Made by a program: the position numbers and the translations under genes
Part shown: positions 2,620 to 25,816 of the stretch, in pieces
Position numbering within the stretch: position 1 is the first letter of the stretch
How the letters are laid out: each line of letters opens with the position of its first letter
Notes under the pieces: model-generated
Told to the model about the DNA's origin: nothing
What the model saw: only the letters and a program-made list of their open reading frames with translations
The model's database searches: none
Assembly: GCF_000336875.1 (NCBI RefSeq)
Contig: NZ_AOJK01000021.1
Span: forward strand, 9,433-73,432
DNA from: Halorubrum californiense DSM 19288
GTDB lineage: Archaea; Halobacteriota; Halobacteria; Halobacteriales; Haloferacaceae
Direction of reading: 5' to 3'
DNA: 64,000 nt

Positions 2620-3780
2620 TTACTCACCACCACAGCTACCACACTGAATGCCATTCGTGATAGACCAGAGTGGGTTTTCTCCCGAAAGTGATTGATTACA
2701 AGTGTCGCAATCAATCTCTTCCGTCACACCGACTCCACTTCCGTATCCGACCGTCAACGATACCGTCGAATCGCGGTCAGTTAATTTGAACTCGACATCA
2801 CCGCGCTCGTATTCAACCTCAGTGATAGTGACAGGAGTAACGACTACTTCTAATCCATGTCGCTCACGAATCTTGTGCTGTTGATCCGGATATCCATGCT
2901 CACGTCGACGACGTAGTGCCTTGAGCTCGGTCTCAACCTCTTCGAGCTTTGATTTACATTCTCGACGCTCTTTCAGCGCCTCAACTCGTTCCGTCTGGTT
3001 CTTATTCTCGATCGACTCGTTGAGCTCCCCAATCTTGGACCGAAGACGGGTGATCTTTGTCTCGAATTCTTCCTCCCGTTGTCGTTGTAACTGACGGTAC
3101 TCTTCGAGTTCTGCGTCAGCGGCCCGGGATGCCTCCTGATGAATCTCATCGATCTGTGGCTGTATGTCTGAGAGGAGAGGTTCACGAGACACGTCTACTA
3201 GCCGCTCCGCCTGCTTCGGTTCCATGGTAAACTCTCCCGACGTGACAGTAGCAGCCTCCGACTGCGTCAAGGTCAGAAATGTCTCGTCGAGATTGGGGAG
3301 AATCTCATTAGAACGGGTATCGATACCAATGCTGCGGAGGAACTCTTGTTGATACTCGCTCACGGTCTCGACAGACACCTGAAAGAGAATGACCAGTGCG
3401 CTCCGGTCATAGTAGGGTGTGAAGTCGATGTCCGAGACTGAGACCGAACTCTCCTTTAGCCAGTCCGGCACAAGGATGTCTGTGTCGGTTGTGTCGACCT
3501 TGATGCTCCCGAGAGGTACACGGCCGCTCGCATCGTCAAGGATCGATTGGAAGAACGAGCTTTCGGGATTGAGGAGGTCGCGTTCCCCATCTGGGTCTCT
3601 GACGGTGTCACAGAGAAGATCGTGTGTGCCTTTCGTCAGACTGGTCTCTACATCCTCCGGAATTGTTACCTGCCACTCGTTGTCCCGTATATCGATCTGA
3701 CAGCCGATAGATTGGAGATACCGCGCTGTGAAACTCTCAACTGTGGACTGAGTCACCGGTACGGCGGCGTCAGTCATCAT
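2620..3780 (-). CDS. Coiled-coil protein with C-terminal zinc ribbon, helicase partner
   Basis: This protein of about 386 residues has no recognised catalytic motif. Residues from about 200 to 290 are rich in E, K, R and L and predict a long coiled coil. The C-terminus carries two CxxC pairs (CDTC and CGSC) that look like a zinc ribbon. Its start, ATGATG at 3780/3777, overlaps the stop of the SNF2 helicase gene, so the two are almost certainly translated together and may form a complex. The position next to a helicase, a DUF499-type ATPase and a DUF1156 methylase suggests an accessory subunit of a DNA-targeting defence system. That role is inferred only from context. Confidence 0.8.
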   Translation of the reverse strand: MMTDAAVPVTQSTVESFTARYLQSIGCQIDIRDNEWQVTIPEDVETSLTKGTHDLLCDTVRDPDGERDLLNPESSFFQSILDDASGRVPLGSIKVDTTDTDILVPDWLKESSVSVSDIDFTPYYDRSALVILFQVSVETVSEYQQEFLRSIGIDTRSNEILPNLDETFLTLTQSEAATVTSGEFTMEPKQAERLVDVSREPLLSDIQPQIDEIHQEASRAADAELEEYRQLQRQREEEFETKITRLRSKIGELNESIENKNQTERVEALKERRECKSKLEEVETELKALRRRREHGYPDQQHKIRERHGLEVVVTPVTITEVEYERGDVEFKLTDRDSTVSLTVGYGSGVGVTEEIDCDTCNQSLSGENPLWSITNGIQCGSCGGE

Positions 3781-5521
3781 CGGCCCCCAAGTCAAATCCT
3801 TCGAAGACACCGCTATTGAACTCCTCTAATTTCTCAGCGAGGTCACGTTGCTCTTGTAGATCAACGGCCATCGCGTCGAAGTCGTTCTCCAAATCGACCT
3901 CGGAATTGGCGCTGACCAGCCGTTCGAAGATCTCATCTTCGAAGCTTTTCCCAGATTCTTCCAATCTCGTGAGAATCTCGCTTAGCTCGCCGACGCTCTG
4001 TTGGAAGAGGTCTATCTTGTGATACAGCCGTTCAAGAACATATTCCTCAACGGTATCTTTCAGAGCCATATTGAACACGTAGACCTGCCGCTTCTGACCG
4101 ATCCGATGGATTCGACCGATACGCTGTTCAACGCGCATTGGATTCCAAGGAAGGTCCCAATTCACCAGAATATTGCAGAACTGAGCATTACGTCCCTCGG
4201 ACATCGCGTCTGTCGAAACGAGAATGCCTCCCTGCTCTTCGAAGCTCTCGATTATCTCCTCTTTCTCCTGACTAGAGTGACCACCATGGAACGAGTGGAC
4301 CGTGTAGCCCTCTGACGCCAGTCTTTCAGCTCCCCGCCGTTGGGTGGCACGGAACTGTGTGAAGACGATCACACGTCCTTTCTCGACGTTCTCACGAGCT
4401 TCTTCAACGATGTCGAGCAGTCGCTCTTGTTTGGTGACCATATCAATGTTATCGATAAGGTCTAGAATCGACTCTAACTCTTCCGTCTCCGTGAGTTCGG
4501 ACTGGTCGTCGAGTCTCTTCCGGATTGTCGTCTCAAGCGCTTCAGGACTACTGACGACTTCTTTTTGGAGGAGCATCAACACCAGTTTCTGTCCTTGGTC
4601 CTGGCTGTAGGCTCCCTTGACGTAGTCGGATACGGCTTGGTAGAGCTCGCGCTCCGCCGGTGAAGGATCGAATTTCCGCGTATCGACCCGTCGTTCGGTG
4701 AAGTCTACATCTGTATCCTCACGGCGATTCCGGATCATCACCTTGTTTAGCCGGTCCTGAAGCTCGTTACGGTTAACGAGGGTTTCTTGGTCGCTATTGA
4801 TGAAATACTGGTGAAACACGTCACGTGTTCCGAACAGGCCCGGACGGAGTAGTGAGACGACGTTGTACAGGTCTGTGAGTTCGTTCTGAATTGGCGTCGC
4901 CGTGAGGAAGAACGCGTAGTTGTACGTGAGTTGGTCGATCAGCTCGTACCGATCCGTCTCCTCGTTCTTCACGTAGTGTGCTTCATCGAGAACGAGAACG
5001 TCCCAGTGGCGTTTGAGCACCGCCTGTCGATATCTGTCGCTTTTGGCCGTGTCGATGCTGGCGATGATGTAGTCGTGGCTGTCGAATCCGTTGAAGTCGT
5101 CATCGTAGTTGCAGACGAACTCTAACCCGAATTTCTCCCGGAGTTCCGCTTGCCACTGTTTGGCCAGTTGGGCGGGTGTCAAGATGAGGACGGAATCGTT
5201 AGTCTCGCGGAAGTGCATCTCCTTGAGTATCATTCCGACCTCGATGGTTTTCCCAAGACCAACCTCGTCGGCGAGTAGCGCCTTCCCGTCCATCTCGAAC
5301 AGAGCGCGATATGCCGCATCGACCTGATGTTCGAGCATCTTGACCGAATTCTCATCAAGCTGCTTCAGCGAACGAAGTTCAGAGTCGGGCTGACCAGCTT
5401 GTAGACGAACTGCTTGAACAGTATGAAGATGAGCTTCACTTGTCTCACTAAGGTCTGCGTGTAGAACATCGTCCGCTGGCTCATGGGTGACCTCGATATC
5501 CACGAGGTCAAAATCGCTCAT
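3770..5521 (-). CDS. SNF2/Rad54-type DNA helicase or translocase
   Basis: This 583-residue superfamily 2 protein has the two RecA-like lobes of the SNF2 family, whose members translocate on double-stranded DNA using ATP. Visible motifs are DEVGLGKT (85-92, Walker A), LDEAH (178-182, Walker B), TATPIQN (motif III), TDAMSEG (motif V region) and QRIGRIHRIGQ (motif VI). A short, Glu-rich C-terminal tail follows. There is no nuclease domain in the protein. It is followed, with an overlapping start, by the coiled-coil/zinc protein and lies divergent to the DUF499/DUF1156 operon. SNF2-type helicases are common parts of predicted restriction-like systems, which supports a defence role here. Confidence 0.93.
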   Translation of the reverse strand: MSDFDLVDIEVTHEPADDVLHADLSETSEAHLHTVQAVRLQAGQPDSELRSLKQLDENSVKMLEHQVDAAYRALFEMDGKALLADEVGLGKTIEVGMILKEMHFRETNDSVLILTPAQLAKQWQAELREKFGLEFVCNYDDDFNGFDSHDYIIASIDTAKSDRYRQAVLKRHWDVLVLDEAHYVKNEETDRYELIDQLTYNYAFFLTATPIQNELTDLYNVVSLLRPGLFGTRDVFHQYFINSDQETLVNRNELQDRLNKVMIRNRREDTDVDFTERRVDTRKFDPSPAERELYQAVSDYVKGAYSQDQGQKLVLMLLQKEVVSSPEALETTIRKRLDDQSELTETEELESILDLIDNIDMVTKQERLLDIVEEARENVEKGRVIVFTQFRATQRRGAERLASEGYTVHSFHGGHSSQEKEEIIESFEEQGGILVSTDAMSEGRNAQFCNILVNWDLPWNPMRVEQRIGRIHRIGQKRQVYVFNMALKDTVEEYVLERLYHKIDLFQQSVGELSEILTRLEESGKSFEDEIFERLVSANSEVDLENDFDAMAVDLQEQRDLAEKLEEFNSGVFEGFDLGADDD

Positions 5522-5578
5522 GTAGTTGGAGAGTTAGTTGACCGTCAAATATGTTGTGTAGGTCTGTTGGAATCCACA

Positions 5579-6418
5579 CTATCCCTTAGAAAACGGATGA
5601 TGAGTGCCGTGACACTTCACACAGAGTGTTTCCAAATTCTCCATTGAATCGGCTTCCTCAGGAGTGTCAAACTCAGCAATATCGGTTAGGTGATGAACAT
5701 TCAGACCAACTCCAAACTGTTCCTTATGTTTCTCCTCTGTGATTCCACAGGATTGGCATTCATAATTGTCACGTTCAAGCGCTCGTTCTCGAAGATCGTT
5801 CCACTCCTTACTTCCATAGTGTTTCTGTCGAGAGTCTCGCTTTGATGCAACAGATGGCTCAGGACCTTTGATATTTGCTTTGTTTAATGCCTCAGACCAA
5901 CTCCCGAAACGATATTGGTATGTTTGACTACTATATTTTCCACCGTTGTCCATCATTCGAACGGATACTTTCCCAGTCAGTTCATAGAGTCTCCATATCT
6001 CAGTAACGAGATCCCATTCACTGTACTTTTTTGAGCCATCTGTGTCATGACTGTATTTCTCAGGACTAGTCTCGACTACGTCAGCAAAAACCGCAGTACC
6101 AAAAACCGATCCGAATTCATCAATATAATCTTGCTGGGTATAGCCATCAATATTATTCAATTCAGGCGGTGTCGGCATTCCTCCGAGCTCATAATATTGC
6201 TGCCGAAACTGACTAATCATTTCTTCACGATCTAATTCTGATAATGAATCTACGTCATCAGGATTCGATGAAATTTGTTTTTGATCTGAGGCAGTCGACC
6301 GTTGCTTTTCAATAACCTGCTTTCTGGCATCTATTCTTGATGCGCCATGAGCATTCGATAAGTGTGCGACCAGCCTGTCTGAATTTTCAAACGACTTCGA
6401 GCAGTCAAAGCATTTCAT
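5579..6418 (-). CDS. C2H2 zinc finger, homing-type repeats and HNH endonuclease
   Basis: This nuclease has about 279 residues when started at ATG 6418; a TTG at 6496 is possible but would add an unlikely N-terminus. A C2H2 finger begins at the first residues (CFDCSKSF...HLSNAH). Two repeats of the homing-endonuclease-associated HNH_repeat type follow in the middle. The C-terminus has a complete HNH-like site: CQSCG, VHHL and CVKCHGTHHP. The gene is clearly AT-richer than its neighbours (27 of 60 bases are G or C at 5941-6000), which suggests later acquisition. It sits upstream of the SNF2 gene on the same strand and divergent to the DUF499 gene. It may be a subunit of that system or an independent selfish nuclease. 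Confidence 0.85.
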   Translation of the reverse strand: MKCFDCSKSFENSDRLVAHLSNAHGASRIDARKQVIEKQRSTASDQKQISSNPDDVDSLSELDREEMISQFRQQYYELGGMPTPPELNNIDGYTQQDYIDEFGSVFGTAVFADVVETSPEKYSHDTDGSKKYSEWDLVTEIWRLYELTGKVSVRMMDNGGKYSSQTYQYRFGSWSEALNKANIKGPEPSVASKRDSRQKHYGSKEWNDLRERALERDNYECQSCGITEEKHKEQFGVGLNVHHLTDIAEFDTPEEADSMENLETLCVKCHGTHHPFSKG

Positions 6419-6562
6419 TTGTCTTATTTTAGAGGAATACGGGATACCGCATATTGGTTGTCCATCGCTCGGCTCCGGAGTAGTATCGCGCCTCAATCAA
6501 TTGAGCCACCCGATCACCATAGTGTTTATTTGCTCAGTGGCAGCGTGTATAAGTAACAACAG

Positions 6563-9500
6563 ATGTCGGAAGTAGACTCCTTGTCCAAGACTCTCGAAGA
6601 CACGGTTACCCTCAGCCGTGAGCTTCGGGAAGATGGACAGATAGACGGGCAGGTAAAACTCTACAACGTGGATGACGAGAACGAATTCGAGTCTAACGCC
6701 GAGCTCTTCTTTGATCGCACGTTGATGACGCAGGGGCTTCGAGAGGCCCTGTCCATTCTTCGGGATTCTCTGACGGGCGATGACCCTCGTGGCACGCACA
6801 TTCTCTATGGGCCCTACGGCAGTGGGAAGTCCCACCAGATGGTGGCACTGTATCATTGCTTCGACGACCCTGCTGCCGCAGGTGGGTGGGCCAGCGACGA
6901 CATTGAGGGATTCGAATCGGCACTTCCCGAGTCAGCAACCCCGATCACGGTCGCCATGCAGAACGAGCAGTACGAGTATCTCTGGGAGCCGTTTTTCGAG
7001 GCACTCGACTACGACCCTGGGACGTACGAGTCCGGCGGCTACCCAGACATGCAGACGATTCAGGACGCTGTCGCCGATGACACTGTCGCGTTCTTCGTCG
7101 ACGAGCTTGAGGACTGGTTCGACACACTCCAAGGAGACCGCAAAAGCGCGAACAAGGCCTTCCTCCAATCGCTGCTTGAATCGACGGCGCTGTCGGATTT
7201 GGAACTCTACACGATCGTGTCTGTCCTCCGTGAAGGGTCCGAAGTCCACGATATTTTGAACCGAGAGCAGGCGGTCGAGGTCAACATGAACAATCAGGTG
7301 GACAAGCGCGAAGTCCTTCACCACCGCCTGGTCGACGACACCGACGAGTCCGCAGCCCGTGACATCGTCAACGGCTACTTCGACGCCTACGACCAGTCGG
7401 ACCACGTTACCGTCCCCGATGATCTCCTGTCGGAGATGCACGATCTCTATCCGTTCCATCCCGTCCTCCTCGATGCGCTTGAGACTCGGTACTACGCCGA
7501 CGAGGGGAATCAGAACACACGTGGGATGATCTACCTCTTCTCGAAGGTCCTCCTCGAAATGAAAGACCAGACGGACCTGATCACCCACGGGGACATCGAC
7601 GGAATCGAATTTGAGGACGAACTCGCCAAGATCAACTACGAGCGGCTCAACGCCGCGACCGGCGACATCAAGAGTCGCGTCGATGAGGACGATGTTCCGC
7701 ACGGTCGTCGCATCCTCAACACCATCCTTCTCTACTCGCTGAAGCCGAGTGAAGGAGAGGGCGCTGAGGTCTCGGAGATCGTGATGGGTGCCTACCAGAC
7801 GGGTGATCTCGTCTCCGACGTCGTGCTCAACCTCGAACGTCTCCACGGCGTCGCGTGGCACCTCCACAAGCTGAACGGGAAGTACGCGATCCGCGACCGT
7901 CAGAATCCGAATGCGCTCATCCGGAACGCCGCCGTCGATGTGTCCGAGCGATCGGCGAAAGCCGAGATCGCCGACTTCGTCACCGGTATTTTCGGATCGA
8001 CCGCGTATCCCGTCGGGTTCCGGACCGACGACATCCGTGACGTCCCGGATGATCGTGACATCAAGGTCGCCGTGAAGGACGACCAGTGGACACAGGAAGA
8101 GGTCGAGCGCGTCATCACGAACGACAGTCGCGGACGAGAGTGGCGGAACACGCTCGTGTTCGTACAGCCCTCCGGCGACAAGGCGATCGAATCCGGAACT
8201 CGGTACATCGACAAGGCACGGTACATCGAAGGTGCTCGGCAAGTCCTCGCCGACGAATCCCTCGACGACGAGATTCGTGAGTCTATTCAATCAATGAAGG
8301 ACCAGGAGATTAGCGAGCTCCGTGAAGAGCTACAGTTGCTCTACGGAGAGGTTCTCGACGGCGACAACCTGCTTCAAGAGTTCGACCTCGTGGCACCGAT
8401 GGACCTCGATGTCTACGTGGATGATGGGCCGGAACTCGACGCCTCGAACATTGCGGACTCCGCAGCGGCGGACCCCTTCGACCTGCAGTCGGAGGTATGG
8501 CCCATCGTCTCAGACTTAGTGGAACGTCGAGGCGAGATTTCAGTCGAGGACGTGTACGAGCAGTTCCTCCGCGATCCTGAACTCCCGATCCCAGGCAGCG
8601 CGAACGACGTGTTGAATGCGACGGTGGAAGCCCTCAATGGGAAGCCGGTACTGGCTCGTGACTCCGGTGGGTTCCGTGACGACCTCTCCGGGAGTTCGCT
8701 TGACACCGTCCTAGTCCGGAAGGAGGACGTGGAAGTGTGGGGTGTCGACGACGTCGAACAGGAACTCCGCAAGCGGTTCGGAAGCGGAACGACGGCGCTC
8801 GACATCGGCGACTTCGAGTTGGAACTGGTCGAAGATGGCGAGGTCTGGCTCGACGGCGACAGCCACGATGTGGTGATGCGTGCAATCGGGCGGCTGAACC
8901 GCGAAGATCAGTATGTGGTCGTTCGAGGTAACGAGATTCTCGACAAGCCGCAGTCGGACGCGACGCTTCGAGACGTCGGAAGTGCGACGACCATTGGCGG
9001 TTCGTACCTCGTTGAGCGTATCGAAGAGGCAATTGAGGCCGAGGGATACGCGAACCTCGAAACGATCATCGGAGAAGTTCGCGCGGACGAATCGGTGTTC
9101 CTCCCGCCGAACGAAACTGAGACGGCAGCCCGCGAGGCAGTGAACGAATTCCTCATCGACGGGTACGTGCTCGAAGCAGGCGGACGGTATTTAGACTCTC
9201 TCGGCGACCGGAACCCGATGGCGGTGAAGATCGTTCCGACGGTCTCCGACCGGATTGGCGAACAGATTCTCGACCATCTAGACGACCTTGATACCGGTGA
9301 CCAGTTCTCCGTGAGTAAGGTCGCCGATCGGTTCGATAGCACCGTCACCGAAGACATGGTGCAGACGTTCCTGCTACAGAATCTTGGTCGTGAAGAGGAT
9401 CCGGTGTACGTCGTCGGACCCACGGGCTCCGAGAAAGCGTCCGATTGGGTCCCTGGGTATCCGTTCCGGATTCCCGATGTCGGCTCGGAAACGTGGCGGT

Positions 9501-9769
9501 TCGAGTACAATGGCGACGACGTCGCCGCCATGCGCAAGAAGTGGCGACGGGATCATCAGACTGGGACCGTGGAGTACGGCGACGTCACGTTCATGCTTCC
9601 GGACCGAGAGGGTGTTCCCAGTGCGCTTCAGGGAACGGCCGACATCGAACGGTCGCAAGTGAGCCTGACGTTCCGCTCAGAGCAGGATTACACCAAGGTA
9701 CAGGACTTGTTCGAGCGAATGCCTGATGAAGCGTCGAGTCTGAAAGTCGAGATTAGCTTCCAAAAATGA
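6563..9769 (+). CDS. DUF499-type P-loop ATPase
   Basis: This 1068-residue protein has an N-terminal AAA-like ATPase. Walker A is GPYGSGKS at 83-90 and a Walker B-like segment, FFVDELEDW, lies near residue 178. Long winged-helix-like and unassigned regions follow. Size, motifs and gene partner match DUF499-family ATPases, known from defence loci together with DUF1156 methylases. A TATA-like GTTTATTT lies about 30-40 bases before the ATG in the short intergenic region shared with the HNH gene, so the two transcription units diverge. Its codon usage is haloarchaeal throughout, unlike the gene that follows. The stop overlaps the methylase start (ATGA), implying coupled expression. The biochemical role is unknown; it is a possible DNA-sensing or translocating motor. 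Confidence 0.85.
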   Translation: MSEVDSLSKTLEDTVTLSRELREDGQIDGQVKLYNVDDENEFESNAELFFDRTLMTQGLREALSILRDSLTGDDPRGTHILYGPYGSGKSHQMVALYHCFDDPAAAGGWASDDIEGFESALPESATPITVAMQNEQYEYLWEPFFEALDYDPGTYESGGYPDMQTIQDAVADDTVAFFVDELEDWFDTLQGDRKSANKAFLQSLLESTALSDLELYTIVSVLREGSEVHDILNREQAVEVNMNNQVDKREVLHHRLVDDTDESAARDIVNGYFDAYDQSDHVTVPDDLLSEMHDLYPFHPVLLDALETRYYADEGNQNTRGMIYLFSKVLLEMKDQTDLITHGDIDGIEFEDELAKINYERLNAATGDIKSRVDEDDVPHGRRILNTILLYSLKPSEGEGAEVSEIVMGAYQTGDLVSDVVLNLERLHGVAWHLHKLNGKYAIRDRQNPNALIRNAAVDVSERSAKAEIADFVTGIFGSTAYPVGFRTDDIRDVPDDRDIKVAVKDDQWTQEEVERVITNDSRGREWRNTLVFVQPSGDKAIESGTRYIDKARYIEGARQVLADESLDDEIRESIQSMKDQEISELREELQLLYGEVLDGDNLLQEFDLVAPMDLDVYVDDGPELDASNIADSAAADPFDLQSEVWPIVSDLVERRGEISVEDVYEQFLRDPELPIPGSANDVLNATVEALNGKPVLARDSGGFRDDLSGSSLDTVLVRKEDVEVWGVDDVEQELRKRFGSGTTALDIGDFELELVEDGEVWLDGDSHDVVMRAIGRLNREDQYVVVRGNEILDKPQSDATLRDVGSATTIGGSYLVERIEEAIEAEGYANLETIIGEVRADESVFLPPNETETAAREAVNEFLIDGYVLEAGGRYLDSLGDRNPMAVKIVPTVSDRIGEQILDHLDDLDTGDQFSVSKVADRFDSTVTEDMVQTFLLQNLGREEDPVYVVGPTGSEKASDWVPGYPFRIPDVGSETWRFEYNGDDVAAMRKKWRRDHQTGTVEYGDVTFMLPDREGVPSALQGTADIERSQVSLTFRSEQDYTKVQDLFERMPDEASSLKVEISFQK

Positions 9770-12444
9770 CCCAAGATTCAGAGAAGTCCATGACCGAGAA
9801 CGAGTACGAACAACTTCCGATAGAAAGAGGGTATCCGATTGAACGAGTGAATGAAATTGTCGGTCGAGAAAATCGAGCTAAGAGACACTACCGTCCACTC
9901 TCCACTATGCATAAATGGTGGGCACGTCGTTTGGGGTCAGTTTTCCGAACAATCTGTCTGTATACCTTGCTTGATGATGAGGACAAGATTTCAGTCCGAG
10001 AACCAGGTGAGAATGAGCAACTTGGCCAGTATCTAAATGATGATACTATTGGTGAAAAGATGATGCAAGTAGATCTAGAAAATCCTGATGCTTTATGGGA
10101 GTATTATAAAAAAGATGTTCAAATAACAGATAAAAAGGTTCTAGATCCATTCATGGGTGGAGGAACCTCATTAATGGAATCTGCCCGATTCGGTGCGGAA
10201 GTGGTTGGGAATGATTTGAATCCTGTAGCCTGGTTTGTGACAAAGAAAGAGCTTGAAGCAGGGGGAACAGATGTAGAAGAACTCCATTCCGCTTTTAGTA
10301 AAGTCAAGAATGAAGTCAAAGAGAACCTTTCTTCTTATTATAAAACAAATTGCCCAGAGTGCGACGAGAAAGCTGATGTAATGTATTATTTGTGGGTGAA
10401 TGAATTAGATTGTGTCTCCTGTGACAGCACGGTATCACTCTTTAAAGATTACAGAGTGGCAAAAGGAAGATACGACGATAGCCATCTGTATAATGTGCTC
10501 TGTCCTGATTGTGAATCAATTATAAAAGTAGAAGACTGGCGAAGCGAGTGTTCGTGTGATGAATGTGGTAATAGATTCGTCCCCCAAGAAGGAAATTCGG
10601 ACGGAACCAACTACTCATGCTCCGACTGTGGACAGCAATATGGAGTTATTGATGGAGTCCGTGAACAAGATGGCTATCAGCCACGCTTGTATGCGATAGA
10701 ATATTATTGTCCACACTGTGATGATCGTGGTCTAAGTAGAAGTGAGACAAAAGGTTACAAATCGGTAGATGAGTCTGATATAGAACGATACAAAGAAGCT
10801 GCTGCTGAATGGGAAGAGCGTCCTGAACTCCGGGAATATATCCCAAGTGAAGATATCCCGTTGGGAATTCTAACGAATAGTACAGCTTTCGATGGAAGTA
10901 TCGGCGGTGGGCACGTTGTTTTGCGGCACGGGTATGAAAAGTGGTCAGATCTATTTAACAAGCGTCAACTTCTATGTCTTTCTGAACTTCTCAAGAGTAT
11001 TGATAACGTTGAAAATCAAAATGCACGAGAATATCTTCTAACAGCGTTCTCTGATTCGTTAATGTTCAATAATACCTTCACAATATATAACCTCCAAGGG
11101 CACAAGGTTGAAGGAATATTTAAGCAGAATTCTTACAAACCACAAAAAGAATTTGTAGAAAATAACGTATGGGGAACAAGATACGGTCGCGGAACCTTCA
11201 GTAAGTCGTGGGATAAAGTAACAAAAGCTGTTGAATGGGCTAATGATCCAACAGAGAGATATGTTGAAAACGGAGACACTAAGAAAACGCCACCATTTGG
11301 GAGGAAGATAGACCCAGAATATAATTTAACATGTGGTGATGTTCGAGATCTTGAATATGAAAATGAATTTGACGTTGTTCTCACAGATCCACCATATTAC
11401 AATAACCTGATCTATTCGGAAACATCAAATTATTTTTATGTTTGGCTTCGCCAGATACTGGCAGATGACTATTCCATATTTGAACCAGATCAAACGCCAA
11501 GAGCGGAGAGTATTGTAGCCAATCCGGCAGAAGGAAAGACAGAGGAAACATTTGAAGAGGAACTCAAAGAAGCCTTTTCCAAGATTAGTACCGCTCTCAA
11601 TTCAGATGGTGTTCTGGTGTTCACGTACCATCATAGTGATTCAGAATCGTGGGGGGAATTATTAGAAGCACTCTGTGACGTAGGATTTAGAGTAACTGCC
11701 ACATACCCGATAACAGCTGATACAAATCGGGCATCTTATAAATTAACTGAGGGTGAATCTGTTTCTTTCGACATCATCATTGTAGCGAGACCTTTCAAAC
11801 AAACTGAGTCGGTTAGTTGGAATTCGCTTCGGCGTCGAATATACCGAACAGCAAAAGAAACTCGACGTCGGATTAAAAGAAGCCAAAGAGAACTATCACG
11901 TGGGGATATCGGTGTTATTGAGATGGGTCGATGTTTCCATGAGTATTCCAAACACCACGGAAAAGTACAGCGTGATGGTGAGATCATGTCCGCAAAAGAG
12001 GTCGTGGAAGAAATCTACGGCATCATTCAGGAAGCCAGCGACATCGGCGTCGAAGACGTGTTTATCGACCTACTCGATAGCCCCGATGCCTCGTTCGACG
12101 ATGTCAACAAGCTCTGCCGCGGCACCAACGCCAAGCCTGAGGAACTCAAAGAGATGTGCCTGTACAACACCGACGACGGCTTCGAACTCGGAACGTGGGA
12201 CAACGAGAAACGTCAGGCGTACATCCAAGAGCGTACCAACGGCAACGGCGACAAGCATCTCTCGAATCTCGACAAACTACAGTTCCTCCGCTACCGCTAC
12301 GAGAAGGGACAGGCCGTCCAAAACTACGTGGACAAGTGGGGCGTCGATGACGACCTGCGCGAGCTCGCCGGACGGCTTGCGGACGTGACTGGTGATGATG
12401 CCTACACGCGGGTGCTCGGCGATCGAGATATCACGAGCTACTGA
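9766..12444 (+). CDS. DUF1156-family adenine-specific DNA methylase, mosaic gene
   Basis: This 892-residue methyltransferase has an S-adenosylmethionine motif, DPFMGGG (127-133), and a catalytic DPPY (541-544), which suggests N6-adenine or N4-cytosine methylation. Between them lie several CxxC pairs (about residues 200-320) that look like zinc ribbons. An early KWWARR segment matches DUF1156-type proteins. Base composition is split. From the start to about 11,985 the gene is AT-rich (24 of 60 bases G or C at 10381-10440). The last 150 codons return to local usage (35 of 60 at 12121-12180). This suggests exchange of the N-terminal and target-recognition part. It overlaps the DUF499 gene by 4 bases and is probably the self-marking enzyme of the locus. 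Confidence 0.9.
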   Translation: MTQDSEKSMTENEYEQLPIERGYPIERVNEIVGRENRAKRHYRPLSTMHKWWARRLGSVFRTICLYTLLDDEDKISVREPGENEQLGQYLNDDTIGEKMMQVDLENPDALWEYYKKDVQITDKKVLDPFMGGGTSLMESARFGAEVVGNDLNPVAWFVTKKELEAGGTDVEELHSAFSKVKNEVKENLSSYYKTNCPECDEKADVMYYLWVNELDCVSCDSTVSLFKDYRVAKGRYDDSHLYNVLCPDCESIIKVEDWRSECSCDECGNRFVPQEGNSDGTNYSCSDCGQQYGVIDGVREQDGYQPRLYAIEYYCPHCDDRGLSRSETKGYKSVDESDIERYKEAAAEWEERPELREYIPSEDIPLGILTNSTAFDGSIGGGHVVLRHGYEKWSDLFNKRQLLCLSELLKSIDNVENQNAREYLLTAFSDSLMFNNTFTIYNLQGHKVEGIFKQNSYKPQKEFVENNVWGTRYGRGTFSKSWDKVTKAVEWANDPTERYVENGDTKKTPPFGRKIDPEYNLTCGDVRDLEYENEFDVVLTDPPYYNNLIYSETSNYFYVWLRQILADDYSIFEPDQTPRAESIVANPAEGKTEETFEEELKEAFSKISTALNSDGVLVFTYHHSDSESWGELLEALCDVGFRVTATYPITADTNRASYKLTEGESVSFDIIIVARPFKQTESVSWNSLRRRIYRTAKETRRRIKRSQRELSRGDIGVIEMGRCFHEYSKHHGKVQRDGEIMSAKEVVEEIYGIIQEASDIGVEDVFIDLLDSPDASFDDVNKLCRGTNAKPEELKEMCLYNTDDGFELGTWDNEKRQAYIQERTNGNGDKHLSNLDKLQFLRYRYEKGQAVQNYVDKWGVDDDLRELAGRLADVTGDDAYTRVLGDRDITSY

Positions 12445-12534
12445 GTACAGTCACTTACCCTCTGTCGTCACTTCAGTACTGCTCGATTACACCCGACTGC
12501 CGAGATTTATCAACCACTTCTCCATGGAACACGT

Positions 12535-12661
12535 ATGTCTACCCACATCGAGACTGCTGTCGGCGTTGATGCATGTCCCATCGGCTGGCTTGCGACGATC
12601 TTCGACACCAATGAGATCAGGACCGAGGCATACGAGGAGTTTGGGGAACTGCGCCGAGTCT
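12535..12661 (+). pseudogene. DUF429 protein, 5' part, split by insertion sequence
   Basis: The first 42 codons of a DUF429-family protein start at ATG 12535 and show the family-like N-terminus GVDACPIGWLA. The frame is broken at AGTCT (12657-12661), the left copy of a 5-bp target duplication. Joining this piece to 14066 restores one uninterrupted frame (...LRRVYNDADRILVDIPIG...) of 239 residues. DUF429 proteins are predicted to have an RNase H-like fold and their function is not well known. The gene lies just downstream of the DUF1156 methylase on the same strand, so it may have been an accessory of that locus before disruption. Confidence 0.88.
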
Positions 12662-12771
12662 CAGTACCTCACAAAGCATCCTTGGCTAGCTGTTTCTGCG
12701 GTCTGAGTTCTGTGTCGAAGCGGTTGTACTGACGATCTCGATGAGAGAATTACGGACGGATCGACGGAGAG

Positions 12772-12809
12772 CTGTCGCTGTCGGCGGCGGTCAGACGCCG
12801 ACGCGACAG
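12772..12809. repeat. Hairpin downstream of the transposase gene
   Basis: CTGTCGC and GTCGGCG pair with CGCCGAC and GCGACAG around a 9-base loop, with one bulged T. This gives a 14-bp stem about 40 bases past the transposase stop and inside the insertion sequence. It could act as a transcription terminator or block read-through from outside. Confidence 0.6.
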
Positions 12810-12846
12810 CGTCGCCACTCCCGCCACAGGCTTTCCCGGTCGGTGG

Positions 12847-14013
12847 TTAGCGGTGGAATCGGTCGTCAGGTGGCCGGTTCGCGGGGACGGCCCGACGCAC
12901 CGCGAGGGCCGTCCACGCAGCGCGTCGAATCATATTGACGAACTCCTTGTACGGCCACCACCAGAGGCGACGCCCGCCTCGGCGGGGCGTCGCCACATAC
13001 TCGTAGTGAAGGTACCGCCAGACGTTCTGTAAGAGTAAACTCACCACGACGTACAGTAGCCGTACCGTTGGATCTCGTGTTGTCGTTGTCGCTATCGCTT
13101 GCTCAAACAACCGATAGCTCGACTCGATACCGAACCGCTTGCTGTAGTGGTATCGAGCGTCGCGTGGTGAGTCGATGAACGGCGCGTCAGCGGCGTAGCC
13201 GTGACGCGCCACACCGTTCTCGTCATACTTCCCGTTTAGGTACGTACAGTCGATGTAGACGGGAAACTCGACGGTCCAGCTGTGACCGTCGAGTTTCCCC
13301 GTCAGATCGTGCTGAATGACGCGACTCCATCCTTCCGAGAGCTCTTGCTGAATCGTCTCACCCCACCGGATGATCGGGATCACGTACGCGTAATCATGCG
13401 CTTGAAGCAGCGTGAGGCACTTGCTGTCGTAGAATCCGCGATCGAGGTAGACGGCCTTGACCTCGGTGTCAAGGCCGTCAAGGACACCGAGGAACTCAGC
13501 GAGGACGCTGCTGGCGGTATCGCCGTCTTCGAGACGGCGTACCGCCAGCGTGTAGCGTTTGTTCTTCACACGCGCGTAGAGTGTCGCATAGGCATGGAAC
13601 GCGGTGGTTCCGCGCTTTGCGACTGAGTGGAAGAGTCCGTTTGTATCGTCTTCGTCACCGTAGTAGGGTCGCAGGTGGAGGTCTGCGCAGACCTCCACCT
13701 GCTCGGGGAGCAGTTCATCGAGGTTCTTCCGCAGGAGCGTGTTAGCGACTCGTTCGAGCCGATCGGGCTCGAACTTCGTCCGGAGATGGTAGAGGATCGT
13801 GTTCGCAGCAGGTGTGTTCTGGCTCGAAGCACAGAGCGTAGAGACAGAGGTCCCGTCGGCGCAAGCGCCGACGAGGACCTCATAGATGTCCTCAGCAGTG
13901 ATTTCAGCATTATTCGCTAAGGAGAGCGGAACTTCCTCGTCAAGGCGGTTGACGAGAAAGTTAAGAAGCTGGTCCTCGTGGATCACACCGTCTGCTTGCT
14001 TGGTTTTAGACAC
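12847..14013 (-). CDS. ISH3-like DDE transposase
   Basis: This 388-residue transposase is the only gene of the insertion sequence and would catalyse its movement. The core carries the pattern around AVYLDRGFYDSKCL, a likely DDE catalytic Asp segment, and a later segment with YHYSKRFGIESSYRLFEQ, containing the typical Y-x2-R...E signature of IS4-like DDE enzymes. The start is a GTG at 14013 placed in the loop of a 12-bp inverted repeat (13989-14000 and 14020-14031). That repeat may hide the initiation region in longer read-through transcripts. The coding region is unusually rich in perfect inverted repeats. It appears intact, so the element may still be active. Confidence 0.92.
   Translation of the reverse strand: MSKTKQADGVIHEDQLLNFLVNRLDEEVPLSLANNAEITAEDIYEVLVGACADGTSVSTLCASSQNTPAANTILYHLRTKFEPDRLERVANTLLRKNLDELLPEQVEVCADLHLRPYYGDEDDTNGLFHSVAKRGTTAFHAYATLYARVKNKRYTLAVRRLEDGDTASSVLAEFLGVLDGLDTEVKAVYLDRGFYDSKCLTLLQAHDYAYVIPIIRWGETIQQELSEGWSRVIQHDLTGKLDGHSWTVEFPVYIDCTYLNGKYDENGVARHGYAADAPFIDSPRDARYHYSKRFGIESSYRLFEQAIATTTTRDPTVRLLYVVVSLLLQNVWRYLHYEYVATPRRGGRRLWWWPYKEFVNMIRRAAWTALAVRRAVPANRPPDDRFHR
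13261..13299. repeat. 16-bp perfect stem inside transposase gene
   Basis: GGGAAACTCGACGGTC (13261-13276) is followed after 7 bases by its exact reverse complement (13284-13299). It is one of several long hairpins within the coding sequence of the transposase. Confidence 0.85.
13450..13549. repeat. Two further hairpins inside transposase gene
   Basis: GACGGCCTTGAC (13450-13461) pairs perfectly with 13468-13479 around a 6-base loop. GCTGGCGGTA plus CGCCGTC (13510-13527, one bulged T) pairs with GACGGCG plus TACCGCCAGC (13533-13549), giving a 17-bp stem with a 5-base loop. Confidence 0.8.
13672..13701. repeat. 30-bp perfect palindrome in transposase gene
   Basis: The half-site CAGGTGGAGGTCTGC at 13672-13686 is followed directly by its exact reverse complement at 13687-13701. 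The palindrome is in frame and encodes QVEVCADLHL of the transposase. It has no spacer. Confidence 0.9.
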
Positions 14014-14031
14014 ACCTTCAGCAAGCAGACG
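13989..14031. promoter_or_regulatory. 12-bp inverted repeat flanking the transposase start codon
   Basis: CGTCTGCTTGCT (13989-14000) and its exact complement AGCAAGCAGACG (14020-14031) surround the GTG start at 14013. In a transcript entering from outside the element this would place the start codon in a hairpin loop next to a strong stem. That arrangement could limit transposase translation. The effect is inferred. Confidence 0.6.
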
Positions 14032-14060
14032 TTCTAACTAAGCGGCTTTGTGAAGTACTG

Positions 14061-14658
14061 AGTCTACAACGACGCAGATCGCATCCTGGTAGACATCCCT
14101 ATTGGATTTCCGAAAGATGAGCGACGTCGATGTGATGAGGGCGCACGTGAGCTTCTCGGCAGTCGGGGCTCATCTGTGTTCTACCCGCCATGCCGGGCCG
14201 CAGCGGAACAGGATGTCTATGCGGAGGCGAGTAAGGCACACAAGAAACAAATCGGTCACGGTCTCTCTCAGCAGGCATACAGTATCAGTGAGAAAATCTT
14301 GGAGGTTACTGACGCGGTTGGAGAGGAGTATGAGGGCGTCGTCCGCGAGGCACATCCCGAACTCTGCTTTGCTGCACTGAACGGACAACCGATCGCCTAC
14401 TCAAAATCGACTGATTGGGGTCGTGGTCTTCGAATGAAACTACTTGAAGACGAACTTGATAACGCCGAAGAACACTATCTAGATGTGCGAGACGAGTATC
14501 TTCTCAAAGAGGTTCGAAGGGATGACATCCTTGATTCGATGGTTCTTGCGGTTGCGGGACGAGAGCCGAGCCCAGCGACTGTGCCCTCAGACCCACTGCC
14601 AACGGAACCACGGATCTACTATTCCGAGTTCCACGTTCCGAAATATGAGAAGGCATAG
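14061..14658 (+). pseudogene. DUF429 protein, 3' part, split by insertion sequence
   Basis: This piece continues the DUF429 frame after the second AGTCT copy (14061-14065). It carries LVDIPIGFP, a motif region expected of the family, then VFYPPCR, HPELCFAALNG and a C-terminal DDILDSMVLAVA. The frame is open from 14066 to the stop at 14658 with no further damage, so the insertion is the only visible lesion. A truncated protein could in principle start at the internal ATG 14176, but the N-terminal strand with the conserved Asp would be missing. Confidence 0.88.
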
Positions 14659-14747
14659 TTCAATAAACGCGTCCTCAGCACCGTGTATTCAATGCTAACT
14701 GCCTCTCACCCGGATGGTACCAGAAATTAGAGCGAATACTGCCTGTA

Positions 14748-15299
14748 CTATTGGGAATCATCCGGATTGTATCGAATTTCGATCCCGAGGTGGTCGAATA
14801 ACCAGACAGTTCCTGCGACAAGGCCACCTGTGAGGAGAAACATTACTGCGGTCATGCTGAACAAGAGCGTGGCCTGTAACAGTAGCTCAAAATCCACGAA
14901 ATAGAATGAGAATCCGTAATTGGTAAACAATATTGCTGCTGTGCTAGAAACAACCGTCACAATACCCAGCAGAATTCCTATCACGATCAACTGTAAGCTA
15001 AGCCGTTCCTGTATCAATTTTAAAATCGGGTATTGAACAGAAGCCGGCTCTTCGACTTCAGCTTCGAGCCACCACAAACGGGTTCTTCCTGGTTTTCGAG
15101 TACCTACCACTCCTTGATCTCGTAGGTCTTTCAGACGCCGCTCCACTTGGCGACGACCGAGATCAACGTGTTCGACGATTTCAGGGGTCGTCAGAATCCG
15201 GTGATCCTCTTTTGCAAATGCATAGAGTATCCCTTCGTTTCGTTCTTTCAGATACGGGTCGATATCCTCCGGGGCACTCTCAGAAGTCGAATTATCCAT
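14748..15299 (-). CDS. Winged-helix membrane protein
   Basis: This 183-residue protein starts at ATG 15299. Residues of about 20-85 form a winged helix-turn-helix (RILTTPEIVEHVDLGRRQVERR followed by a basic wing). Two hydrophobic segments of about 25 residues follow in the C-terminal half, consistent with a DNA-binding domain tethered to the membrane. Such proteins are common in haloarchaeal accessory regions, and their targets are generally unknown. The gene diverges from the small membrane-protein genes at 15412-16153. The shared intergenic region could hold its operator, so regulation of those genes is a reasonable guess. Confidence 0.75.
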   Translation of the reverse strand: MDNSTSESAPEDIDPYLKERNEGILYAFAKEDHRILTTPEIVEHVDLGRRQVERRLKDLRDQGVVGTRKPGRTRLWWLEAEVEEPASVQYPILKLIQERLSLQLIVIGILLGIVTVVSSTAAILFTNYGFSFYFVDFELLLQATLLFSMTAVMFLLTGGLVAGTVWLFDHLGIEIRYNPDDSQ

Positions 15300-15411
15300 G
15301 ATGACCTTGTCCGGACATGGTCATTTCTTTGCCCAGTTCGGATGTGTCCACGTCCAAATAGAGAAATCCACGAGCCTTTATAATTTCCTGGCAGCCCGGG
15401 CTGTAATCGCC

Positions 15412-15474
15412 ATGTGTTTGGCTCAAACCGACGAAGGACACACGGACAGTAACGCGAATGAGGAGGTGGCATAG
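15412..15474 (+). CDS. Possible 20-residue leader peptide
   Basis: ATG 15412 opens a 20-codon acidic frame ending at TAG 15472, 3 bases before the ATG of the next small membrane protein. A TATA-like CTTTATAAT lies about 30 bases upstream (15376-15384), so transcription would begin near the ATG. It could be a translated leader that couples initiation of the next gene, or simply leader RNA. Confidence 0.3.
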   Translation: MCLAQTDEGHTDSNANEEVA

Positions 15475-15477
15475 CCG

Positions 15478-15657
15478 ATGAGTGAAGAGCCACTAGCGAT
15501 TGGTGCTGGCCTCCTGCTCTCCGGGATCGTGTTGAATATGGCACACCCGACCGTAGTGGAATTGACGGGAATCTCGATCAGTGGATGGGGCTGGTTATTG
15601 ATCCTTGTCGGTGTCACAGTAATCGGAGTTCGGCTATTAGCGATGATGGGGCAGTAG
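15478..15657 (+). CDS. Small membrane protein (59 residues)
   Basis: ATG 15478 opens a 59-residue frame with two hydrophobic helices (IGAGLLLSGIVLNMA and WGWLLILVGVTVIGVRLL) separated by a short polar turn. No family is recognised. It lies 3 bases after a possible leader peptide and about 95 bases before another membrane protein on the same strand, so the two probably share a transcript. Its compact two-helix hairpin resembles small holin-like or regulatory membrane peptides, but no function is supported. Confidence 0.55.
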   Translation: MSEEPLAIGAGLLLSGIVLNMAHPTVVELTGISISGWGWLLILVGVTVIGVRLLAMMGQ

Positions 15658-15751
15658 ATATCGGCCATGACCGGGTGGGTTGTCTCTTTCGCAACCTCCC
15701 CACTCATCAGCAACCCTATTCTTTTGCGTCTCTCATGTGACCACTGATAGG

Positions 15752-16153
15752 ATGGTCGAGCAACTCACCGCAAACCTGATGCAAGCGTTCATCTATGGTT
15801 TGATAGCTGCATCAATTAGTGGTTTCATTTTCGAGAGCGGAGACAGCTATACAAAGACAGCGTGGTCAGGAAACGAATTTGCGGGCAAGATCGAAGCGCT
15901 CCCGTTCTTCCTTACCACGTTCTTTCTCGGGCTGTTCATCAAGTACGGGGAGGGGATGATCGGTACAGAAGTCACAGCCCTCACTCAGAGTTTTGTAGCT
16001 GGTCAACGGGTAGGTCTGATTTTGATCGCTGGCATGATCGCGTTCAATGCCTCAATAGACAATTTCCGCTACGCAGACCTGAAATCGATCATGGTGATGG
16101 GGGTTGGTGGAGTACTATTCTTCCGGCCAGAAATCATCTATGTCGTTGCCTGA
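15752..16153 (+). CDS. Membrane protein of unknown function
   Basis: The likely start is ATG 15752, giving 133 residues; a longer in-frame start at 15680 would add a non-conserved-looking leader. About four hydrophobic segments are visible (AFIYGLIAASISGFIF; FFLTTFFLGLFI; LILIAGMIAF; MVMGVGGVLFF). No catalytic motif is seen. It follows the small membrane gene at 15478 and is convergent with the soluble gene at 16236. It may be part of an accessory membrane module with the winged-helix membrane protein. Confidence 0.65.
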   Translation: MVEQLTANLMQAFIYGLIAASISGFIFESGDSYTKTAWSGNEFAGKIEALPFFLTTFFLGLFIKYGEGMIGTEVTALTQSFVAGQRVGLILIAGMIAFNASIDNFRYADLKSIMVMGVGGVLFFRPEIIYVVA

Positions 16154-16235
16154 CCGGCTTTCGGTTGGATTGATTGGTTGGCCCTCAATAGGGCCAACTA
16201 TCCGCTGGTTAAACCTACGAATTGAATCAGGAGAC

Positions 16236-16589
16236 CTACAACTGAGACTCGATTTGTTTGAGATCTTCTGCGAAGCGAGCGATTTCGGTCTCCTTCTCAC
16301 CAGGGCCATCGTAAACCTGCTTTACTCGCTGCTCAATGTTGGATTCTGTGCGGTTTGACACGTTAGCAACATTTCGAATTGCCCGCCGTGCTCGGTCAAC
16401 TTCTACGGGAAGTTTCTCTGTTCTTCTCTGGGCGTGGAGCGGAACCGGGTCAAGATCAAGGAATTCGGCAACAACCTGGTCTCTGTAATCACTGGCTGGC
16501 GCAAACCGGTCGAATATTTCGTCGGTTGCCTCTGCTTGTTCGTCCGTAAGCGGTCGATCCGAATTATTGATGAATTCGTCTAGTACCAT
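16236..16589 (-). CDS. Small soluble hypothetical protein
   Basis: This 117-residue, mostly helical, charged protein starts at ATG 16589. There are no Cys clusters, membrane segments or known motifs. Composition is haloarchaeal. It is convergent with the membrane gene at 15752. No function is recognised. Confidence 0.55.
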   Translation of the reverse strand: MVLDEFINNSDRPLTDEQAEATDEIFDRFAPASDYRDQVVAEFLDLDPVPLHAQRRTEKLPVEVDRARRAIRNVANVSNRTESNIEQRVKQVYDGPGEKETEIARFAEDLKQIESQL

Positions 16590-16747
16590 GTGATACCACT
16601 AGGAGGGGTGTTCTAATAGAGCATGATGGATAGTTTGCCGATTTCTGACAGCAGAATTCAGCATACTATGGAAAACGTATTTATACTGCTTCCTGATTGA
16701 TTGTCCAAACTCGTCACACAGAGTCTGATATCCCATCTGAGAGTAGT

Positions 16748-16885
16748 ATGGTGTATCTTCATAGCGATCGTTGGATGACTCTTTTCGACAATAGTCTGTG
16801 CGAAGAGTGGATATACAACGATATGATTAGGGAAATTTGTCAGCCCAAGCGACAGCATCCTGTTTTTTATCCTGTGGAACTGTAA
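16748..16885 (+). CDS. Possible short ORF (45 residues)
   Basis: ATG 16748 opens a short frame ending 8 bases before the next gene. A TATA-like GTATTTATAC is found about 70 bases upstream. It is Trp- and Cys-containing without a recognised motif. It could equally be leader RNA of the gene at 16894. The rest of 16590-16893 shows nothing else. Confidence 0.25.
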   Translation: MVYLHSDRWMTLFDNSLCEEWIYNDMIREICQPKRQHPVFYPVEL

Positions 16886-16893
16886 ATCAACTA

Positions 16894-17277
16894 ATGGCAG
16901 GACCCGGACGGATCCCCGGACGCTACAATCTCGTCATCAAGGGCGCGTACGACACCTTCGATCACCGAATGCCAGTAAAGGAATTCATCAATCGGTTGCA
17001 GAATGACGACGTCCCGGACAAGGTCTCTGTAATCGGACTCGAAGAGGCCCTCTCGGACGACGAGCTACGAACCAACCTCAAGAAGGCGATGGATCGACGA
17101 GCAAACGATTTGGAGTACCAGAATCCGACGGTTCAGTTCGTCCTCGAAGGGTCCTTCCATCGCCAAGGGAAAACGTACGACCTCCGGTACGATGATCAAC
17201 TCCATTCCCTACAGGACGTGTTTGGGGCGCAACTCGAACGAGAGGGAGATGGAGACTGGCTCGTTACGCCCTTCTGA
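16894..17277 (+). CDS. Hypothetical protein convergent with mcrC-like gene
   Basis: This protein of about 127 residues starts at ATG 16894 (MAGPGRIPGRYN). It is soluble and charged, with no Cys motif or membrane segment, and is not recognised. The stop is only about 10 bases from the stop of the convergent McrC-like gene. Its GC content is like that of the mcrBC-like genes rather than the AT-rich region before it. It may be an accessory or regulatory part of that restriction module, which is a guess from position. Confidence 0.6.
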   Translation: MAGPGRIPGRYNLVIKGAYDTFDHRMPVKEFINRLQNDDVPDKVSVIGLEEALSDDELRTNLKKAMDRRANDLEYQNPTVQFVLEGSFHRQGKTYDLRYDDQLHSLQDVFGAQLEREGDGDWLVTPF

Positions 17278-17286
17278 GTCTCCCGC

Positions 17287-20279: not shown

Positions 20280-20384
20280 TTTCAGATAGGTACAGTCGAG
20301 GGTATATAAAATCCGTCTCAAACAGGTATAGATGATGAACTAGCGTGCGGGCGGTGGTGTAAGTGTACGTTTCGACGTTCTCTA

Positions 20385-22088: not shown

Positions 22089-22092
22089 ACCA

Positions 22093-25813: not shown

Positions 25814-25816
25814 CCT

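What the first reader, a model, noticed from the sequence alone, without database searches (positions are those of the whole stretch)
2620..12444. Candidate multi-gene defence locus: coiled-coil/Zn, SNF2, HNH, DUF499 ATPase, DUF1156 methylase
Two divergent units share a short promoter region. One has a SNF2 helicase overlapping a coiled-coil/zinc protein with an HNH nuclease upstream; the other has a DUF499-type ATPase overlapping a DUF1156 methylase. A helicase, nuclease, ATPase and self-marking methylase together resemble a restriction system. No PglZ, BrxC/PglX or DISARM drmAB set is present, so it is not a standard BREX or DISARM.
Basis: partly seen in the sequence, partly recalled or inferred. 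Interest (0 to 1): 0.78.

Follow-up and report, generated by a model that had tools for sequence, protein, structure and literature searches.

The report
Haloarchaeal BREX-related defence locus with McrBC
This is a seven-gene DNA-restriction-type defence system shared by many salt-loving archaea, related to the known BREX-related/Hma systems but armed with an McrBC nuclease and carrying a methylase whose specificity region is repeatedly swapped between strains.

Summary
One of them (HNH) is a recent insertion, and three more core genes lie at 16.9-20.3 kb beyond a 4.4-kb insertion.

Core, conserved in order across Halobacteria: coiled-coil/Zn protein and SNF2 helicase (divergent); DUF499-type ATPase, DUF1156 methylase and a small protein (c2); then McrC nuclease and McrB GTPase (convergent). 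In 392 genomes, 55 carry the ATPase (58 loci); 55/58 loci have this SNF2 and 54/58 this McrC within 50 kb.

The coiled-coil protein is the detached C-terminal half of a BrxHII-type helicase (profile match E=3e-8).

By ATPase phylogeny the system is a DUF499-centred BREX-related (BR/Hma) system nested among PglZ-bearing BR loci, with McrBC where those have PglZ. The paper that defines BR types 1-3 does not mention McrBC.

The methylase's first ~715 residues are replaced repeatedly between loci whose other genes are 95-98% identical, while its last 170 residues stay conserved. In the window this segment is 40% GC.

Best reading: a restriction system whose methylase alone sets specificity, with sequence-blind McrBC plus a split helicase as effector. 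Defence function is inferred, not tested. New variant of a known kind.

The parts
2620..3780 (-). Coiled-coil/Zn protein (CCZ, 386 aa from the conserved ATG; longest ORF to 3810): detached C-terminal half of a BrxHII/RapA-type helicase
   Evidence: Profile vs BrxHII family: prob 95, E=3e-8, CCZ 9-275 = BrxHII 700-944/974; 60 decoys reach 29 vs 70.5. AlphaFold pLDDT 85.6. Distances track SNF2 rho 0.92
3770..5521 (-). SNF2 helicase core (583 aa), motifs DEVGLGKT, DEAH, TATP, QRIGRIHR
   Evidence: Pfam/PADLOC; aligns to BrxHII 62-630 only; >=65% relatives in 54 of 392 genomes
5522..6562 (.). Divergent intergenic region; ancestral part about 96 bp (5522-5561 plus 6507-6562)
   Evidence: Alignment with L074/L132 skips 5562-6506
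5579..6496 (-). HNH endonuclease with C2H2-like finger and homing-endonuclease-associated repeats: recent insertion, not core
   Evidence: Absent from all other system loci; insertion 5562-6506; 65% relative on an unrelated contig
6563..9769 (+). DUF499-type AAA+ ATPase (BrxC/HmaC-like), Walker A GPYGSGKS
   Evidence: Pfam/PADLOC; 42-100% full-length relatives in 55 of 392 genomes; tree
9766..12444 (+). DUF1156 adenine-type DNA methylase (HmaB-like): FxGxG at 127, CxxC-rich TRD, DPPY at 541; overlaps the ATPase stop
   Evidence: DPPY in nearly all of 55 homologues
9766..11890 (+). Swapped segment of the methylase (residues 1 to about 710): 41% GC, no alignment better than about 65% to the otherwise 85-88% identical locus
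11890..12444 (+). Retained methylase C-terminus (residues about 710-892), putative docking module
   Evidence: 87.6% DNA identity to L132; 94-95% protein identity to nearest loci
12445..16847 (.). 4.4-kb insertion splitting methylase from c2: IS transposase 12847-14013 (-), DUF429 protein 14176-14658 (+), wHTH/TM protein 14748-15299 (-), small membrane protein 15680-16153 (+), ORF 16236-16589 (-)
   Evidence: Absent from L132; transposase 94-96% identical elsewhere; DUF429 also in this slot in L127 and L130
16894..17277 (+). c2, small conserved protein (127 aa): inactive-STAND-like fold predicted, no Walker A
   Evidence: Alignment A3; AlphaFold pLDDT 91.5; weak P-loop-like matches only; homologues also beside the methylase in PglZ loci
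17287..19047 (-). McrC-like PD-(D/E)XK nuclease (586 aa), motif PD..LDSKY
   Evidence: PF10117 E=5e-11; LDSKY in 31/31 homologues
19047..20321 (-). McrB-like AAA+ GTPase (conserved start near 20276), Walker A GPTGTGKT, NxxD signature NMSD; no recognised N-terminal DNA-reader domain
   Evidence: AAA_5 E=1e-16; NMSD in 28/30

Best explanation
The locus encodes a multi-subunit DNA restriction-modification defence system of the DUF499-centred BREX-related (BR/Hma) superfamily. Proposed mechanism: the DUF1156 methylase marks adenines at a motif chosen by its own target-recognition region and so protects host DNA. It docks through its conserved C-terminal ~170 residues on the DUF499 ATPase, which forms the scanning platform. 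The two-piece BrxHII-type helicase (SNF2 core plus coiled-coil/Zn half) translocates along unmarked DNA. The McrB GTPase ring drives the McrC PD-(D/E)XK nuclease to cut it, with the small inactive-STAND-like protein as adaptor or sensor. McrBC occupies the effector slot that PglZ fills in the nearest relatives. Because only the methylase N-terminal 715 residues are exchanged between otherwise near-identical loci, the methylase alone sets the specificity of both protection and attack. Shown here: gene content, conserved order, co-occurrence, split-helicase homology, motif conservation, the swapping pattern, the phylogenetic position of the ATPase. Inferred: complex formation, DNA cleavage, adenine as target, direction (cuts unmethylated DNA), defence function. 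The HNH gene and the 12.4-16.8 kb genes are cargo.
For: Identity: PADLOC HmaB 3e-36 and HmaC 1.5e-14; DUF499 and DUF1156. Unity: 58 ATPase loci, SNF2 within 50 kb in 55 (median 3.4 kb), McrC in 54 (median 9.2 kb); some of the few misses are short contigs (contig lengths). Conserved order CCZ-SNF2 / ATP-MT-c2 / McrC-McrB in 20-kb regions and in an annotated plasmid. Core distances correlate: CCZ-SNF2 0.92, SNF2-ATP 0.74, McrC-SNF2 0.88, McrB-SNF2 0.94, c2-ATP 0.74, all p<=0.001. Methylase residues 1-715 do not correlate with ATPase, SNF2 or CCZ (rho -0.07 to 0.15), nor clearly with McrC (0.35, p=0.09, falling to 0.05 without one outlier). Direct swaps: Haloarcula argentinensis (G016) vs G083 ATP 0.98, SNF2 0.98, methylase 1-715 0.59, 721-892 0.98; converse G211/G254 ATP 0.81, methylase 1-715 0.92. 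Split helicase. Effector swap: ATPase clade 97/98, sister to one PglZ clade (100/100) within all PglZ loci (87/96), rooted on canonical DUF499; PglZ identification. Catalytic motifs intact.
Against: No function has been tested. Twelve of 392 genomes have this McrC family without the ATPase, and two have SNF2 without it, so modules can live apart. The PglZ assignment is weak by profile (best E=1e-6) and rests partly on the DHG motif. The inactive-STAND reading of c2 rests on predicted topology; Foldseek found nothing significant. Foldseek did not return RapA for CCZ either (dominated by the coiled coil). The effector-swap inference depends on the root. The methylase may be m4C rather than m6A.
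Confidence: 0.6

Rival explanations
1. Two independent neighbours: a BR/Hma-type system (ATPase, methylase, helicase) with its own unrecognised nuclease activity, and an McrBC type IV system that travels beside it as a backup against modified viral DNA.
For: McrC family occurs without the ATPase in 12 genomes, and McrB-McrC-c2 without ATPase or methylase in L111. Cargo in the slots is itself defence (GmrSD, FokI-like), so the region attracts defence genes.
Against: 54/58 linkage with fixed convergent order, an interposed core gene (c2), correlated divergence of McrB/McrC with SNF2 and ATPase. SNF2, CCZ and ATPase carry no recognised nuclease domain. McrB carries no recognised modified-base reader.
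Confidence: 0.2
2. McrBC is modification-dependent and attacks DNA bearing the wrong methylation pattern, so swapping methylases makes strains mutually incompatible; the methylase is not a protector but an identity tag read positively.
For: McrBC relatives are classically modification-dependent (background knowledge). The methylase is exchanged while McrBC is not.
Against: The known McrBC-methylase combination LlaJI cuts unmethylated DNA (PMC1459862). McrB lacks a recognised reader domain. A fixed reader would need to ignore each newly acquired host mark.
Confidence: 0.1
3. One reading: a five-gene restriction unit (2620-12444) with the HNH protein as nuclease.
For: HNH lies between the divergent operons; PADLOC gives weak ZorE-like HNH matches.
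Against: HNH absent from all other loci examined, inserted as a clean 945-bp block, with relatives elsewhere; homing-endonuclease-associated repeats. McrBC is the conserved nuclease.
Confidence: 0.04
4. Decayed island: the 4.4-kb IS-bearing insertion and the HNH insertion have inactivated the system in this strain.
For: Insertions between methylase and c2 and in the shared promoter region.
Against: All seven core ORFs are full length with intact motifs. Cargo in the same slots is usual in loci with intact genes.
Confidence: 0.06

Closest known systems
DUF499-centred BREX-related (BR) systems, types 1-3 (Rakesh & Krishnan 2026, PMC12839542)
   Same: DUF499 ATPase, DUF1156 methylase with Zn-bearing TRD insert, Swi2/Snf2 BrxHII-type helicase; RM-like logic proposed
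   Different: Helicase split into two genes and lacking the N-terminal stretch; no active REase fused (type 1), no HKD/DUF3780 (type 2), no PglZ (type 3); McrB and McrC instead. The paper's main text has no mention of McrB or McrC
Hma system (Payne et al. 2021, PMC8565338)
   Same: Helicase, methylase, ATPase trio; best PADLOC matches HmaB and HmaC
   Different: Hma is a three-gene operon with a ~1176-aa helicase model; here divergent units, split helicase, McrBC and c2
BR type-3-like loci in the same archaea (ATPase-PglZ-methylase-c2; L060-L072)
   Same: ATPase ~30% and methylase 30-39% identical; in several loci the same c2 family follows the methylase
   Different: PglZ between ATPase and methylase; no McrBC core pair and no split SNF2/CCZ found in the fetched loci
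LlaJI (McrBC-like R-M system, PMC1459862)
   Same: Methylase plus McrB/McrC-type restriction subunits; acts on unmethylated DNA
   Different: LlaJI has two m5C methylases and its own McrB-like specificity subunit; no DUF499 ATPase or SNF2
E. coli McrBC and the McrBC census (PMC11090510)
   Same: NxxD-class McrB GTPase, PD-(D/E)XK McrC; the census notes branches associated with a DISARM-like system or with DNA methylases, deferred to a later paper
   Different: Here a defined seven-gene core with DUF499 ATPase and split BrxHII helicase; McrB has no recognised N-terminal reader
Sister unit found here: SNF2 (52-58%) plus CCZ fused to many zinc-knuckle repeats plus Mrr-type nuclease (L094-L105)
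   Same: Same split SNF2/CCZ pair
   Different: No DUF499 ATPase or DUF1156 methylase in the fetched loci; Mrr_cat nuclease in at least one

Membership tests
DUF499-centred BREX-related (BR) superfamily | DUF499 AAA+ ATPase | tested here: met
   PF04465 35.4 bits over cut-off 23; HmaC 1.5e-14
DUF499-centred BREX-related (BR) superfamily | N6-type methylase with N-terminal DUF1156 and Zn-bearing TRD insert between FxGxG and DPPY | tested here: met
   PF06634 over cut-off; motif order and six CxxC. Base specificity not tested
DUF499-centred BREX-related (BR) superfamily | Swi2/Snf2 helicase with BrxHII-type C-terminal domains | tested here: met
   Met by two proteins, SNF2 plus CCZ
BR type 1 | Active PD-(D/E)XK REase fused to the helicase C-terminus (79% of published cases), N-terminal TUDOR | tested here: not met
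   Neither SNF2 nor CCZ has a recognised nuclease domain; SNF2 begins at BrxHII position ~62
BR type 2 | DUF3780 gene and HKD nuclease on helicase | tested here: not met
   No DUF3780 or HKD/PLD Pfam match among the core proteins
BR type 3 | PglZ encoded in the core locus | tested here: not met
   No PglZ match in PADLOC for any core protein
BR type 3 | iSTAND protein in the core locus | tested here: inconclusive
   c2 is shared with PglZ loci and its predicted topology fits, but no significant fold match
BREX | PglZ plus BrxC/PglY | tested here: not met
   No PglZ; ATPase is DUF499 rather than BrxC (BrxC only 2.7e-4)
DISARM | drmA and drmB present | tested here: not met
   No DrmB match listed; DrmD/DrmA matches of SNF2 reflect the shared helicase core
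McrBC (type IV) | McrB NxxD GTPase plus McrC PD-(D/E)XK nuclease | tested here: met
McrBC (type IV) | Modified-base recognition domain and modification-dependent cleavage | tested here: inconclusive
   No reader domain recognised by Pfam in McrB or McrC; cleavage not testable here
Hma (PADLOC definition) | Three-gene hmaABC operon | tested here: not met
   Divergent units, split hmaA-like gene, extra core genes

The most novel reading that the evidence does not exclude
A fourth, McrBC-armed subtype of BREX-related system: a split BrxHII helicase and a sequence-blind McrBC motor-nuclease take orders from an interchangeable methylase, so that swapping 715 residues of one protein re-targets the whole restriction machine.
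Probability: 0.6. Interest if true: 0.72.

Novelty: new variant of a known kind. Interest (0 to 1): 0.6.

Why it matters
It would join two families studied apart, BREX-type ATPase/methylase machines and McrBC motor nucleases, and supports the idea that the effector slot in BREX-like systems is interchangeable (PglZ, REase, HKD, now McrBC). The methylase swaps give a natural experiment: strains with 98% identical machinery but different methylases should carry different marks and restrict different DNA, which makes the open question of which BREX-family subunit reads the target directly testable. It may also help explain a transformation and virus barrier found in about one in seven haloarchaeal genomes sampled.

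Tried and rejected
HNH as the system's nuclease: rejected. CCZ as an SMC-like or Lamassu protein: PADLOC LmuB/JetC hits are coiled-coil only, and PDB sequence and fold searches returned only coiled coils. CCZ as the exchangeable specificity subunit: although only 53% identical on average, its distances track SNF2 at rho 0.92, so it evolves fast but is not swapped. The first comparison of CCZ with a DrmD/HmaA-like helicase gave only 41% probability; the BrxHII family gave 95%. c2 by PDB sequence search: nothing. Rfam and promoter scans were not run. Phage collection: no match.
Full report
1. What is in the window. The five reported ORFs exist and carry the reported domains. PADLOC places the methylase with HmaB (3e-36) and the ATPase with HmaC (1.5e-14), and the SNF2 protein with DrmD/BrxH/HmaA helicases.

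2. The real boundary. The ATPase was searched in 392 genomes of the class. About 60 neighbourhoods were fetched and their ORFs clustered. Three further window genes recur with it: a 127-aa protein (c2, 16894-17277), an McrC-type nuclease (17287-19047) and an McrB-type GTPase (19047-20321). The usual order is CCZ- SNF2- | ATPase+ methylase+ c2+ | McrC- McrB-, with variable cargo in three slots (SNF2/ATPase, ATPase/methylase, methylase/c2). Cargo seen includes GmrSD and a FokI-like nuclease and, in the window, the HNH gene and an IS-bearing 4.4-kb block. The more distant clade (42-62% ATPase identity) has the same genes in other orders; one locus in it, a Halorientalis litorea plasmid, has three DUF1156 methylases.

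3. Co-occurrence. Of 58 ATPase loci in 55 genomes, 55 have SNF2 and 54 have McrC within 50 kb (median distances 3.4 and 9.2 kb). At genome level: ATPase+SNF2 52, ATPase only 3, SNF2 only 2, neither 335; ATPase+McrC 53, 2, 12, 325. The nominal Fisher p-values are tiny, but genomes are not independent. The system is found across many genera, on chromosomes and on plasmids; none in phage records.

4. HNH. DNA alignment with the closest fetched locus (N. sulfidifaciens, L074/L132) gives 85-88% identity over 2650-5561, 6507-9765, 11890-12444 and 16848-20327 and nothing comparable over 5562-6506, 9766-11890 and 12445-16847. The HNH is therefore a clean insertion into an intergenic region of about 96 bp. 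Its 65% relative lies on a different contig from the system in G051.

5. The coiled-coil protein. AlphaFold gives an N-terminal alpha/beta region, a ~100-residue antiparallel coiled coil, long strands and a C-terminal tail with two CxxC pairs. A profile of 35 orthologues aligns to the C-terminal region of BrxHII helicases (700-944 of 974) with probability 95% and E=3e-8. The N-terminal domain alone gives E=1.6e-4, and 60 decoys score at most 29 against 70.5; decoys were single sequences, and single BrxHII sequences score 40-59. SNF2 aligns to BrxHII 62-630; the target family is BrxHII by PADLOC (1826 bits). The two proteins together are one helicase in two genes (583 + 386 aa versus about 971 aa). 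A sister unit has the same pair with zinc-repeat extensions and an Mrr-type nuclease.

6. The swapped methylase. Among 22 close loci, distances of CCZ, SNF2 and ATPase correlate strongly (0.73-0.92). The methylase segments 1-300, 301-540 and 541-715 correlate with none of them (-0.07 to 0.15); the C-terminus does so weakly with the ATPase (0.35, p=0.011). McrB, McrC and c2 track the core (0.65-0.94), not the methylase N-part. Pairs with 98% identical ATPase and SNF2 have methylase N-parts 59-75% identical and C-parts 95-98%; other pairs show the reverse. The swapped part is poorer in GC (mean 0.50 versus 0.59), and 0.41 in the window. The breakpoint lies near codon 710, and the other boundary at or near the start codon. 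Identity is lowest at residues 301-540, the TRD side of the DPPY motif. This is what exchange of specificity looks like, with the C-terminus as probable docking module (inference).

7. Relationship. In the ATPase tree (54 sequences) the McrBC clade is supported 97/98. It is sister to one group of PglZ-bearing loci (100/100), and both sit with a second PglZ group (87/96) apart from canonical DUF499 proteins. PglZ identity rests on weak profile matches and a conserved DHG motif. c2 also follows the methylase in several PglZ loci. The simplest history is replacement of PglZ by McrBC, subject to rooting. The published BR classification (types 1-3) does not mention McrB or McrC in its main text. 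The McrBC census (PMC11090510) mentions McrBC branches linked to DISARM-like systems and to methylases without detail, so the association of McrBC with methylases as such is not new.

8. Mechanism and limits. See Best explanation. McrB lacks a recognised reader domain and does not covary with the methylase. In LlaJI, by contrast, the McrB-like subunit is the specificity subunit (PMC1459862). That favours targeting through the methylase, as is generally held for BREX (background knowledge). None of this shows defence; all functional steps await experiment.

Noticed in passing
window 25061-26305: Pycsar-like pair: nucleotide cyclase (PycC 5e-17) followed by a two-TM effector (PycTM 2e-28).
   Followed up: partly
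window 22000-22827: Serine resolvase (PF00239, E=1e-25), possible mobility gene of the island.
   Followed up: no
window 469-2532: Complete MCM helicase gene directly beside the defence locus; whether it is the only chromosomal MCM was not checked.
   Followed up: no
L094-L105 (e.g. L094:6522-13596, L101:6998-11527): Sister unit: SNF2 plus CCZ-like protein fused to a long run of zinc-knuckle repeats (675-1185 aa) plus Mrr-type nuclease or a 298-aa protein; looks like an undescribed haloarchaeal system.
   Followed up: partly
L119/L120 and L197 (Halorientalis litorea plasmid): Loci of the more distant clade carry up to three different DUF1156 methylases with one ATPase, suggesting multi-motif marking.
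   Followed up: no
window 14176-14658: DUF429 protein in the methylase/c2 slot; 66-72% relatives occupy the same slot in L127 and L130.
   Followed up: no
G000:C25:142100-143878 (L073): The same genome carries a second, canonical DUF499 locus with DUF1156-type methylase and a SNF2-type helicase region.
   Followed up: partly
L124:10109-15187: Very large cargo protein (1692 aa) with an HSP90-like N-terminal ATPase region (by eye) and a C-terminal HNH-like region near the methylase.
   Followed up: no
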